Shown piece by piece: positions 34,220-56,460 of a DNA stretch of 64,000 bases. The translations under genes and the position numbers were made by a program. Positions within the stretch are counted from its first letter, which is position 1. Each line of letters begins with the position of its first letter. The notes below the pieces were generated by a model. It did not search any database, had not been told where the DNA came from, and was given only the letters and a program-made list of their open reading frames with translations. Source of the DNA: Platerodrilus igneus (taxonomy: Eukaryota > Arthropoda > Insecta > Coleoptera > Lycidae); NCBI GenBank assembly GCA_036346225.1, contig JARFIW010001189.1, positions 1,470,501 through 1,534,500 of the forward strand, in the 5' to 3' direction.

Positions 34220-34295
34220 GTAGGAGGAATACAGGCTTTCTGTGACCACATTTCCTCCCAAATCCCACATTTTCTCCCACATTTACATGTAAATC

Positions 34296-34690
34296 CCCAT
34301 AAGGAGGAAATGTGGTGGAGGGACTCCTAGGAGGAAATGCGGAGATGTAAATCCCCATAAGGAGAAAATGTGGTGGAGGAACTCCTAGGAGGAAATGCGG
34401 AGATGTAAATCCCCATAAGGAGGAAATGTGGTGGAGGAACTCCTAGGAGGAAATGCGGAGATGTAAATTCCCATAAGGAGGAAATGTGGTGGAGGGACTT
34501 CTAGGAGGAAATGCGGAGATGTAAATCCCCATAAGGAGGAAATGTGGTGGAGGAACTCCTAGGAGGAAATGCGGAGATGTAAATCCCCATAAGGGGGAAA
34601 TGTGGTGGAGGAACTCCTAGGAGGAAATGCGGAGATGTAAATTCCCATGAGGAGGAAATGTGGTGGAAGGACTCCTAGGAGGAAATATGG
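34296..34690 (+). repeat. Subterminal tandem array, 58-bp unit, about 6.8 copies
   Basis: Each unit carries CCCCATAAGGAGGAAATGTG and CTCCTAGGAGGAAATGCGG, that is, two half-units of about 29 bases built on AGGAGGAAATG. The extreme tip of the element, TAGGAGGAAT, is a version of the same motif. Inverted partner array at 56105-56395. Confidence 0.92.
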
Positions 34691-34739
34691 AGATGAATCT
34701 TAGCATCCACATTTTCACACACAATCCACATTTGATCCA

Positions 34740-35400
34740 CATTTGGCGACAGTAATAAATAACATTGTCATCTTAAATTTACAACAAAATAGTTTTCTTC
34801 GTCTAACCAATGCATCTTTCGATATAACCCTAACTTGTTTGGTATTAATTAATATTAGAATTTTCTCAGCTACCTGAATTTCTAGGAATTTTTTAGATTG
34901 CATGATCACCCAGAGAGCTACCCCAATTTTAAGATTTTCTGCATGCAGCAACTTTATGATTGTCCTTATCAACTTTTTAAAGATGTGACGCATCTTTCTA
35001 GTCTAGAATTTTACGCAGAATGCGAATCTGCAAACAGATATGCAATAGGACCACACCCTGCAAAGTTATACCCCTTTAAAGACTCTGAGTCTCTAAATTT
35101 TGCTCTTTGCTCCCAAATCTGAACCAAATAGTTTTCTTCGTCTAACCAATGCATCTTTCGAGATAACCCTATCTTGTTTGGTATCAATTAATATTAGATT
35201 TTCTCAGCTACCCGAATCTCTAAGAATTTTTTATATAGCATCATCCCACAGGGAGCTACCCCATTTTTAAGATTTATGACCGTCCATATAAATTTTTTAA
35301 CCATATGACACATCTTATTAGTCTAGAATTTTACGTAGAATCCGAATCTGCAAAGAGATTTAAAATCGGACCATCCCTTACAAAGTTACTCCTTTAAAGT
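34740..35400 (-). repeat. Subterminal unit of about 360 bases, two copies (left arm)
   Basis: Two successive copies share TAACTTGTTTGGTATTAATTAA-like, GAGCTACCCCAATTTTAAGA-like and CTAGAATTTTACGCAGAAT-like blocks. Plus-oriented copies lie at 55390-56040 and at 46480-47280. The short Ile/Lys-rich frames they open are by-products. Confidence 0.8.
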
Positions 35401-35763
35401 CTCAAACCTCTTTAAATTGCTTTGCTCATCTATAACATATGCTTTAAACAACCATTTCCCTAGAAATCTAAACCGCAAAGATTTTAGAAATGAGTTCTTT
35501 ATAAGCCATAAGTGCTTAATATTTAAAATCATTTTTTCAAACAGTAATGTGCTGTTTTCAGAATATCGGAAAAACCCATGACTTTTAAAATTTTTCTGGT
35601 TTTAACATAATTACATGCACAATGCTAAATAGTTGGAAAATACATTCATTTTACAAACTAATTGCTTTACAATTATGTGACGTATAGTGAAAGTAGCCTT
35701 TCTTTTTTATTAATTAGCGGCTATATGATTTGTAAATACAATAGATATACTGAATGTCATCCA

Positions 35764-36312
35764 TTAGGAAATTCCCGTATAATTGCTGGTGTACACAATG
35801 TACTTTCTATTACGACCTCGACTAGGAGAAATGCAAACTTCATCTTGTAATACGGATCGATTAACGGTTTTCAAACCGCATAAAAACGCGATCTGATTAG
35901 TAAAAACGTATTCCTTCCGTACGTTTCTTTGGCGTGTAAAAGTACATCGATATTTTAAACAATCGTTTTTGTGCAGTAATTTTTTGTGAAGATTTAAGGT
36001 AGGTCTACATATATTTGCAAACACCAATTAATGTGTATTTTGCCATTGCTTCTGATTGTATTTTAAAAACATTAATTTTTCCAAAGTAACGCGCTGTTTT
36101 ACATATATATTTTTTTCAAATTTTAAATATAGGCTTTTAGCTAGACGAATGTTAGGCGTATCTATCAACACCCCAATTCCGAAATGACTATTTCTTTTGG
36201 AATTGTAGAATATGGTGTTACAGATTGTGTAAAACATGTTACCTGCTTTAATGTAACACTTGTGTAAGATTTTTATTTTATCTTGGCTGTCTTCCTCCTC
36301 TACTATCTCCAA
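35764..36312 (-). pseudogene. Gene fragments in left arm (mirrors 54464-55010)
   Basis: 36312-36028 shares EEEDSQDKIKILHKCYIKAG and IDTPNIR with the core gene at 43275-45003 (its residues near 44010-43840), so it is a short copy of that gene's later part. 36027-35764 is an 87-codon frame with KYRCTFTRQRNVRKEYVF and SRGRNRKYIVYTSNYTG; I do not recognise it. In the right arm the second frame carries an in-frame stop at about 54862. These are decayed, internally deleted pieces of the element's own genes. Confidence 0.6.
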
Positions 36313-36341
36313 ATAATTTACATGTAAGGTGGGCGAAGAAC

Positions 36342-36571
36342 TTAAAAATTACGGGATCTTAAAACTAATATATACAATAGATTTACAGCATACCTCTTCC
36401 TCGGTTCGGATACTCCATCGTCGACACTGGTGTTCTTTATGCGGTAGCAAGTCATACGGTTGTTAAACGCTATGCTTACCATTTCTACACTATCTTCGCC
36501 AGTAGCGGTTTTTCCAGGTATAGGAAACACTGCAAGAGTTGCATTTAAAACGTTTGCAGGTACCATTTTAG
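36342..36571 (-). pseudogene. Deleted copy of the C2H2 gene, left arm
   Basis: Starts like the core gene at 45536 (MV-ANV after the same leader) but the zinc fingers are missing: the frame jumps to EMVSIAFNNRM and YRIKNTSVDDGV, which in the core gene follow the third finger. It ends shortly after. The right-arm twin is at 54209-54434. The upstream sequence also matches the core gene's promoter region. Confidence 0.7.
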
Positions 36572-54208: not shown

Positions 54209-54434
54209 AATGGTACCTGCAAACGTTTTAAATGCAACTCTTGCAGTGTTTCCTATACCTGGAAAAACCGCTACTGGCGAAGATAGTGTAAAAATGGTTA
54301 GCATAGCGTTTAACAATCGTATGACTAGCTACCGCATAAAGAACACCAGTGTCGACGATGGAGTATCCGAACCGAGGAAGAGGTATGCTGTAAATCTATT
54401 GTATATATTAGTTTTAAGATCCCGTAATTTTTAA
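54209..54434 (+). pseudogene. Deleted copy of the C2H2 gene, right arm
   Basis: Twin of 36342-36571: the same start, the same loss of all three fingers, the same join into KMVSIAFNNRM and YRIKNTSVDDGV. Identical breakpoints in both arms mean that the deletion predates the arm pair. Confidence 0.7.
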
Positions 54435-54463
54435 GTTCTTCGTTCACTTTACATGTAAATTAT

Positions 54464-55012
54464 TTGGAGATAGAAGAGGAGGAAGACAGCCAAGATAAAA
54501 TAAAAATCTTACACAAGTGCTACATTAAAGCAGGTAACATGTTTTACACAATCTGTAACACCATATTCTACAATTCCAAAAGAAATAGTCATTTCGGAAT
54601 TGGAGGGTTGATAGATACGCCTAACATTCGTCTAGCTAAAAGCTTATCTTTAAAATTTGAAAAAAATATATATGTAAAACAGCGCATTACTTTGGAAAAA
54701 TTCATATTTTTAAAATACAATCAGAAACAATGGTAAAATACACATTAATTGGTGTTTGCACATAAATGTAGACCTACCTTAAATCTTCACAAAAAATCAC
54801 TGCACAAAAACGATTATGTAAAATATCGATGTACTTTTACACGCCAAAGAAACGTACGGAAGGAATAGGTTTTTACTAATCAGATCGCGTTTTTATGCGG
54901 TTTGAAAACCGTTAATCGATCCGTATTACAAGATGAAGTTTGCATTTCTCCTAGTCGAGGTCGTAGTAGAAAGTACATTGTGTACACCAGGAATTATACG
55001 GGAATTTCTTAA
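54464..55012 (+). pseudogene. Gene fragments in right arm (mirrors 35764-36312)
   Basis: 54464-54736 shares EEEDSQDKIKILHKCYIKAG and IDTPNIR with the core gene. The following frame matches 36027-35764 but carries an in-frame TAG near 54865 (after RNVRKE). Non-functional remnants. Confidence 0.6.
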
Positions 55013-55389
55013 TGGATGACATTCAGCATATCTATTGTATTTCTCAAATCATATAGCCGCTAATTAATAAAAAAGAAAGGCTACTTTCACTATACGTCAC
55101 ATAATTGTAAAGCAATTAGTTTGTAAAATGAATGTATTTTCTAACTATTTAGCATTGTGCATGTAATAATGTTAAAACCAGAAAAATTTTCAAAGTCATG
55201 GGTTTTTCCGATATTCTGAAAACAGCACATTACTGTTTGAAAAAATGATTTTAAATATTAAGCACTTATGGCTTATAAAGAACTCATTTCTAAAATCTTT
55301 GTGGTTTAGATTTCTAGGGAAATGGTTGTTTAAAGCATATGTTATAGATGAGCAAAACAATTTAAAGAGGTGTGAGACTTTAAATGAGT

Positions 55390-56040
55390 AACTCTGTAAG
55401 GGATGGTCTGATTTTAAATCTGTTTGCAGATTCGGATTCTACCTAAAATTCTAGACTAACAAGATGTGTCACATGGTTAAAAATTTATATGGACGGTCAT
55501 AAAATCGCTGCATGCAGAAAATCTTAAAAATGGGGTAGCTCCCTGTGGGATGATGCTCTATAAAAAATTCTTAGAGATTCGGGTAGCTGAGAAAAATCTA
55601 ATATTAATTGATACCAAACAAGATAGGGTTATCTCGAAAGATGCATTGGTTAGACGAAGAAAACTATTTGGTTCAGATTTAGGAGCAAAGAGCAAAATTT
55701 AGAGGCTCAGAGTCTTTAAAGGGGTATAACTTTGCAGGGGGTGGTCCTATTGCAAATCTGTTTGCAGATTCGAATTCTGCGCAAAATTCTAGACTAGCAA
55801 GATGCGTCACATGGTTAAAAAGTTTATAAGGACAATCATAAAATTGCTGCATGCAGAAAATCTTAAAATTGGGGTAGCTCTCGGGGGGATGATGCAATCT
55901 AAAAAATTCCTAGAGATTCAGGTAGCTGAGAAAATTCTAATATTAATTAATACCAAACAAGTTAGGGTTATATCGAAAGATGCATTGGTTAGACGAAGAA
56001 AACTATTTTGTTGTAAATTTAAGATGACAATGTTATTTAT
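55390..56040 (+). repeat. Subterminal units, two copies (right arm)
   Basis: Plus-oriented copies of the same unit as 34740-35400 and 46480-47280. Confidence 0.8.
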
Positions 56041-56104
56041 TACTGTCGCCAAATGTGGGAGCAAATGTGGATTGTGTGTAGAAATGTGGATGCTAAGATT
56101 CATC

Positions 56105-56395
56105 TCCACATTTCCTCCTAGGAGTCCTTCCACCACATTTCCTCCTTATTGGGATTTACATCTCCGCATTTCCTCCTAGGAGTCCCTCCACCACATTTCC
56201 TCCTTATGGGAATTTACATTTCCGCATTTCCTCCTAGGAGTTCCTCCACCACATTTCCTCCTTATGGGGATTTACATCTCCAAATTTCCTCCTAGGAGTT
56301 CCTCCACCACATTTCCTCCTTATGGGGATTTACATCTCCGCATTTCCTCCTAGGAGTTCCTCCACCACATTTACTCCTTATGGGGATTTACATGT
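56105..56395 (-). repeat. Subterminal 58-bp array, about 5 copies (right arm)
   Basis: Reverse complement of the left array, with two fewer units: CATTTCCTCCTAGGAG and CACCACATTTCCTCCTTATG recur. Copy number differs between the arms, as expected of tandem arrays. Confidence 0.92.
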
Positions 56396-56460
56396 AAATG
56401 TGGGAGGAAATGTGGGATTTGGGAGGAAATGTGGTCACAGAAAGCCTTTATTCCTCCTAC

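What the first reader, a model, noticed from the sequence alone, without database searches (positions are those of the whole stretch)
34220..56460. A 22-kb inverted-repeat element with 8-bp target duplication splits a hAT transposase
The hAT reading frame ends at LLELE (34219) and resumes at LEDAARV (56461). TTAGAAGA is present on both sides, and the insert's tips are GTAGGAGGAAT and its complement. Known giant TIR elements with PolB (Polintons) give 6-bp duplications, whereas this one gives 8. Its gene fragments (C2H2 plus PolB-like ends, and a Rep-like unknown) do not fit any transposon class that I can name. It may represent an undescribed family of large virus-like transposons.
Basis: partly seen in the sequence, partly recalled or inferred. 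Interest (0 to 1): 0.9.

Follow-up and report, generated by a model that had tools for sequence, protein, structure and literature searches.

The report
Polinton-derived insect transposon with Rep-like gene
The 22-kb insert is a virus-derived transposon of the known Polinton kind (6-bp, not 8-bp, target duplication) that has lost its capsid, integrase and polymerase genes and instead carries an undescribed replication-initiator-like gene, which is abundant in this genome and found in several insects.

Summary
The insert is real: two 3.5-kb inverted arms, exact target duplication, split hAT gene. Its interpretation changes. Eleven other copies with both tips were fetched; 11 of 12 copies, window included, have an exact 6-bp duplication and termini 5'-AGTAG...CTACT-3'. 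The window's "8 bp" is TAGAAG plus one chance base on each side. One copy with the same ends (C925) encodes a double-jelly-roll capsid protein, rve integrase and A32-type ATPase: Polinton/Maverick ends. The window copy is a non-autonomous derivative, about 12.6 kb before a LINE and a Gypsy element entered it. It keeps only polymerase remnants, plus a broken gene of a roughly 780-residue family without Pfam match. That gene has at least 57 near-full-length copies here, 19 without stops, and relatives in named insects. Nine intact copies give dN/dS 0.26-0.80. Models weakly suggest a rolling-circle initiator fold plus OB folds. Known kind, but a Polinton-derived group with a Rep-like gene was not seen in the open-licence papers searched.

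The parts
34213..34218 (.). left target-site duplication TAGAAG (6 bp)
56462..56467 (.). right target-site duplication TAGAAG (6 bp)
34219..37743 (+). left inverted arm, starts AGTAGGAGGAATACAGG
53758..56461 (-). right inverted arm, outer part
47463..48186 (-). right inverted arm, inner part, cut off from the outer part by the Gypsy insertion
34287..34695 (.). 58-bp minisatellite in left arm, 7.1 copies
56101..56393 (.). 58-bp minisatellite in right arm, 5.1 copies
43274..45030 (-). Rep-like gene, main part; matches residues 87-655 of P0020; broken by a stop and a change of frame; first 86 residues not matched
38811..39218 (-). Rep-like gene, C-terminal part (P0020 655-789), cut off by the LINE
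39220..43274 (-). LINE insertion (RVT_1, exo/endonuclease, PHD finger), 6-bp duplication TAGGTT 39214-39219 / 43275-43280
45482..46318 (+). C2H2 reading of 278 codons, homologous to the N-terminal part of Polinton-type PolB, ends at INKYKPI
38357..38488 (-). remnant of the PolB C-terminal end, 77% identical to the C925 PolB fragment over 44 residues
37775..37960 (-). second PolB C-terminal remnant, 74% identical over 62 residues
36148..36327 (-). Rep fragment inside left arm
54449..54628 (+). Rep fragment inside right arm
45022..47263 (+). third, diverged (78-91%) copy of arm sequence in pieces, direct with the right arm
48187..53752 (-). Gypsy LTR retrotransposon, LTRs 48187-48599 and 53340-53752, duplication AATTG
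33948..34218 (+). hAT transposase gene, last part left of the insert (target)
56462..56815 (+). hAT transposase gene, part right of the insert, with dimerisation domain

Best explanation
The insert is a non-autonomous member, by descent, of a Polinton/Maverick family. Shown: ends 5'-AGTAG...CTACT-3', 6-bp duplications, long arms, and shared ends and arm sequence with an element that encodes capsid, integrase and packaging ATPase. Inferred: the integrase of such autonomous relatives recognised the ends of a linear DNA copy of this element and joined it to a 6-bp staggered cut in a hAT gene. The element's own lineage has lost integrase, capsid genes and the body of PolB, keeping only PolB's N-terminal C2H2 part and scraps of its C-terminus, and carries a Rep-like gene. 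The most likely role of Rep, by weak fold evidence and recalled motifs, is to nick DNA and start replication of the element, with its OB-fold part holding single strands. After insertion the copy was hit by a Gypsy element and a LINE and its Rep gene decayed.
For: Exact 6-bp duplication in 11 of 12 copies of the tip family (the exception C462 has a diverged right end), and in 2 of 3 further Rep-bearing loci whose surroundings were fetched (C1267 TCCGGA; C858 CAGAAT, one mismatch in its left tip; ends of C131 not reached). C925 has the same tip, its first kilobase matches all 12 other elements compared at 70-92%, and it encodes rve 1.3e-9, double jelly roll capsid 1.3e-74, A32 ATPase 1.4e-5 and a PolB fragment containing YTDTDSL. 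PolB scraps like that of C925 in 8 of 11 other elements searched (C1016, C1052, C244, window, C1658, C1308, C771, C319; not in C462, C565, C447). Rep in 8 of 13 elements, the virion and integrase genes of C925 in C925 alone, never both; the one weak integrase hit elsewhere (C1658, 26%) lies in a Gypsy-type ORF. None of 57 listed Rep places lies within 150 kb of any of 110 listed PolB places (both lists are lower bounds). dN/dS below 1 in 36 of 36 pairs of 9 intact Rep copies. Arms differ by 3.3% in outer and inner parts, Gypsy LTRs by 3.4%, which fits arms that were equal at insertion. Polinton duplication length of 6 bp: PMC10045372, passages.
Against: The window copy encodes no integrase, PolB body or capsid protein, so membership rests on ends, duplication and shared arms. 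C925 itself has arms of only about 0.54 kb against 3.5 kb here. Four of 13 elements carry neither Rep nor virion genes (C462, C565, C244, C447). Nothing here shows that a Polinton integrase moved the Rep-bearing copies. The Rep fold call is weak: no Foldseek E below 0.001 in PDB, the second model's first rank is an unrelated immune receptor complex chain, and TATA-binding protein and ribosomal S6 score as well or better in the second look; Pfam gave no Rep family. That 5'-AG termini are typical of Polintons is recalled.
Confidence: 0.88

Rival explanations
1. A foldback-type cut-and-paste element (Mutator, P or hAT related) with minisatellite-bearing arms and 8-9 bp duplications that captured viral gene pieces.
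For: Arms with tandem repeats resemble foldback elements such as Tetris, 8-10 bp duplications (PMC4079207, passages) and Rehavkus, 9 bp with minisatellite (PMC6446971, passages).
Against: Duplications are 6 bp in 11 of 12 copies. A capsid- and integrase-bearing copy has the same ends. No transposase of those kinds in the element's ORFs tested by Pfam.
Confidence: 0.04
2. Rep is cargo: a stray gene caught by a Polinton derivative, without a role in the element.
For: Rep elements lack all other Polinton genes found in C925; the window copy is scrambled, with Rep pieces duplicated into the arms.
Against: At least 57 near-full-length copies, 19 of 57 free of stops; dN/dS 0.26-0.80; 8 of 13 end-bounded elements carry it; a full-length relative of 778 residues is recorded in Schistocerca americana.
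Confidence: 0.15
3. One reading: a new class of virus-like transposon with 8-bp duplications, separate from Polintons.
For: TTAGAAGA on both sides in the window.
Against: 11 of 12 copies show 6 bp and the genes of C925 are Polinton genes.
Confidence: 0.02
4. Rep belongs to a separate virus or plasmid lineage that merely uses Polinton ends after recombination, and still replicates and spreads outside the genome.
For: No listed PolB place near the listed Rep places; spread among insects and intact copies.
Against: PolB scraps in 7 of 7 Rep-bearing elements searched for them (window, C1016, C1052, C1658, C1308, C771, C319), and the same reading is visible in the C1267 ORF list, which points to descent from a Polinton; no relative in IMG/VR by 7 scans.
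Confidence: 0.15

Closest known systems
Polinton / Maverick (polintovirus)
   Same: 6-bp duplication, long inverted arms, PolB N-terminal C2H2 part and C-terminal scraps, same ends as a copy with capsid, rve integrase, A32 ATPase
   Different: no integrase, capsid, ATPase or PolB body in the window copy, and none of the C925 genes in the other 7 Rep-bearing elements compared; a Rep-like gene was not seen for Polintons in the listings and passages viewed
Foldback elements (Tetris), Rehavkus
   Same: arms with tandem repeats
   Different: 8-10 or 9 bp duplications in print against 6 here; no related transposase found
Rolling-circle initiators RepDE (4cwc, 4cwe) and the Geobacillus initiator (4cij)
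   Same: the named replication proteins that rank highest for the modelled Rep domain; D-x-T-x-D, K-x-YNK and R-x-E conserved (their likeness to Rep motifs is recalled)
   Different: no sequence-level match; long protein with a C-terminal OB-like part; found in insects
Helitron
   Same: a rolling-circle type initiator in a eukaryotic mobile element (PMC6431247, passages)
   Different: no helicase found in the Rep proteins by Pfam, inverted arms and target duplications present

Membership tests
Polinton/Maverick | 6-bp target duplication | tested here: met
   11 of 12 copies incl. the window; 6 bp in print
Polinton/Maverick | long terminal inverted repeats | tested here: met
   3.5 kb, 3.3% mismatches
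Polinton/Maverick | termini 5'-AG...CT-3' | tested here: met
   that this is typical is recalled
Polinton/Maverick | protein-primed PolB | tested here: not met
   window has only the N-terminal part and C-terminal remnants; hence filed as a non-autonomous derivative, not as a Polinton
Polinton/Maverick | retrovirus-like integrase | tested here: not met
   none in the window insert apart from the Gypsy element's; met in family member C925
Polinton/Maverick | capsid protein and packaging ATPase | tested here: not met
   absent from window; both present in C925
Foldback / Mutator / P / hAT | 7-10 bp duplication and matching transposase | tested here: not met
Rep_trans initiators | Pfam match | tested here: not met
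   no Rep family
Rep_trans initiators | fold | tested here: inconclusive
Rep_trans initiators | nicking by a catalytic tyrosine | not testable with these tools
   needs a bench assay

The most novel reading that the evidence does not exclude
In insects a branch of Polintons exchanged its protein-primed DNA polymerase and its virion genes for a rolling-circle-like initiator fused to OB folds, and now lives as a high-copy satellite that borrows the integrase (perhaps also the capsids) of full Polintons, while keeping the PolB N-terminal C2H2 part as a stand-alone protein.
Probability: 0.4. Interest if true: 0.8.

Novelty: new variant of a known kind. Interest (0 to 1): 0.55.

Why it matters
Polintons are placed near the root of many eukaryotic DNA viruses and are said always to encode a protein-primed polymerase and an integrase (PMC4642659, passages). 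A lineage with Polinton ends but a Rep-like gene would show how a self-replicating element can change its way of replicating, would link rolling-circle initiators with Polintons in animals, and gives ends and a setting to a protein family that public insect records list only as 'uncharacterized protein'.

Tried and rejected
Rejected: 8-bp duplication; foldback/Mutator class; assembly artefact (317 tip places). Led nowhere: IMG/VR scans, GTDB contigs, phage records, PDB by sequence (only E 0.15 and worse), NCBIfam, PHROGs (best for the Rep family phrog_33254, function unknown, E 0.00032, 2 of 15 members). Phage initiators fetched as a yardstick: the two tested matched other Rep families and were not used. 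The 1246-codon C90 reading has no Pfam match; it is called PolB from motifs (YADFES, DANNLYGWAM, KLMNNAIFGKTMEN, YTDTDSL), recalled, with an endonuclease VII-like stretch at E 0.011. No family absent from the structure lists is claimed to be excluded. A search for capsid genes in the whole genome did not complete, so the number of full Polintons here is unknown. The host species is not known; 'insect' is inferred from relatives.

Selection told: one search lists 46 tip matches, 40 of them (near) full length; 24 of these 40 form 12 inverted pairs, picked by eye, and all 11 new pairs were fetched; the other 16 were not. The 9 Rep copies were taken from the 19 of 57 without stops, which favours intact genes but not synonymous over other changes. 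Rep places with ends looked for: 3 of 57 (C1267, C858, C131).
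Full report
What is in the window. The insert stands at 34219-56461. Its two arms (34219-37743; 47463-48186 plus 53758-56461) are inverted copies that differ at 77 of 2322 compared sites in the outer part and 24 of 724 in the inner part, minisatellites and gaps left out. Each arm has a 58-bp minisatellite near the tip. The right arm is cut by a Gypsy element with 413-bp LTRs that differ at 14 of 409 sites and a duplication AATTG. A LINE with a duplication TAGGTT lies in the centre. Without these two and their duplications the element was about 12.6 kb long. 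The flanks join into a hAT reading frame whose left side has a BED finger and right side a hAT dimerisation domain.

The duplication is 6 bp. The host genome became searchable late: 2.71 Gb in 1723 contigs, unnamed. The tip gave 46 matches, among them 12 inverted pairs, from 1.5 to 23.4 kb apart. All 11 new pairs were fetched. When the termini are set at 5'-AGTAG...CTACT-3', 11 of 12 copies have identical 6-mers on both sides; C462, with a diverged right end, does not. In the window the left flank ends in T-TAGAAG and the right flank begins with TAGAAG-A, so the element's last T and first A happen to extend the match to 8. Six base pairs is the length given for Polintons (PMC10045372, passages seen). 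The 24-base tip occurs at 317 places with up to 3 mismatches, 0 for the reversed control.

The family is Polinton. C925, 16.6 kb, has the same tip; its first kilobase matches all 12 other elements compared at 70-92% in its best pieces, though its own arms are only about 0.54 kb long. Its ORFs match the integrase core (1.3e-9), the double jelly roll capsid domain (1.3e-74) and poxvirus A32 ATPase (1.4e-5). A reading of 213 codons has YTDTDSL, motif C of family B polymerases (recalled). The C2H2 reading of the window is homologous to the N-terminus of long open frames of up to 1361 codons elsewhere in the genome (110 scored places); the one read (C90) shows polymerase motifs (recalled motifs; no Pfam match). 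In the window this N-terminal part, ending at INKYKPI, and two C-terminal remnants are left. Readings in C319 and C1267 end alike (INKYEPI, INKYKPI).

The Rep-like gene. The larger window piece matches 13 proteins, and a profile finds 38, some of them the same. Full-length members have 760-790 residues. Named sources are Schistocerca americana (778 residues), Planococcus citri and Cacopsylla melanoneura (shorter records) and Aphis craccivora (fragment); one of 785 residues is filed under Baumannia and is probably host DNA (inference). The window copy covers residues 87-789 of P0020 in three pieces with the LINE at about residue 655. In the host genome 57 near-full-length places were scored, 19 without stops. 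Nine of these 19 gave dN/dS of 0.26-0.80 in 36 pairs, so the protein has been under selection while copies spread. Of 13 elements compared, 8 carry Rep, 1 carries virion and integrase genes, none both, and 4 carry neither. None of the 57 Rep places is within 150 kb of any of 110 listed PolB places (both lists are lower bounds).

Reading. Descent from a Polinton is supported by ends, duplication, arms and polymerase scraps. Integration in trans by a Polinton integrase is inferred. That Rep now serves replication is inferred from selection, weak fold evidence and its position as the longest gene left. Papers: listings of searches showed no Polinton with a Rep gene; [quoted passage not shown] the passages seen of PMC6431247 mention Rep proteins in rotifer Terminons and Helitrons. 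Only open-licence papers were searched.

Noticed in passing
window 7122-7661: Bromodomain ORF (3e-18), recalled as TAF1-like, in the left flank
   Followed up: partly
window 17606-18979 and 61741-62931: Two ORFs with similar repetitive stretches, the second with a weak zinc knuckle (0.011); perhaps pieces of one retroelement family
   Followed up: no
L017 7745-8533: A DDE_3 transposase reading (2.6e-8) among the capsid-region genes of the C925 Polinton
   Followed up: no
window 34783-35427 and 55350-56012, also 46494-47263: A tandem unit of about 339 bp in both arms and in the inner arm copy with a short open reading of its own
   Followed up: no
P0029: A 60-kb contig filed as Candidatus Baumannia cicadellinicola carries an open Rep-like gene; probably misbinned insect DNA (inference)
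   Followed up: no
C831, C462 and C266 tip pairs: Inverted tips only 1.5 to 3.4 kb apart, like miniature non-autonomous Polintons; only C462 was fetched
   Followed up: partly
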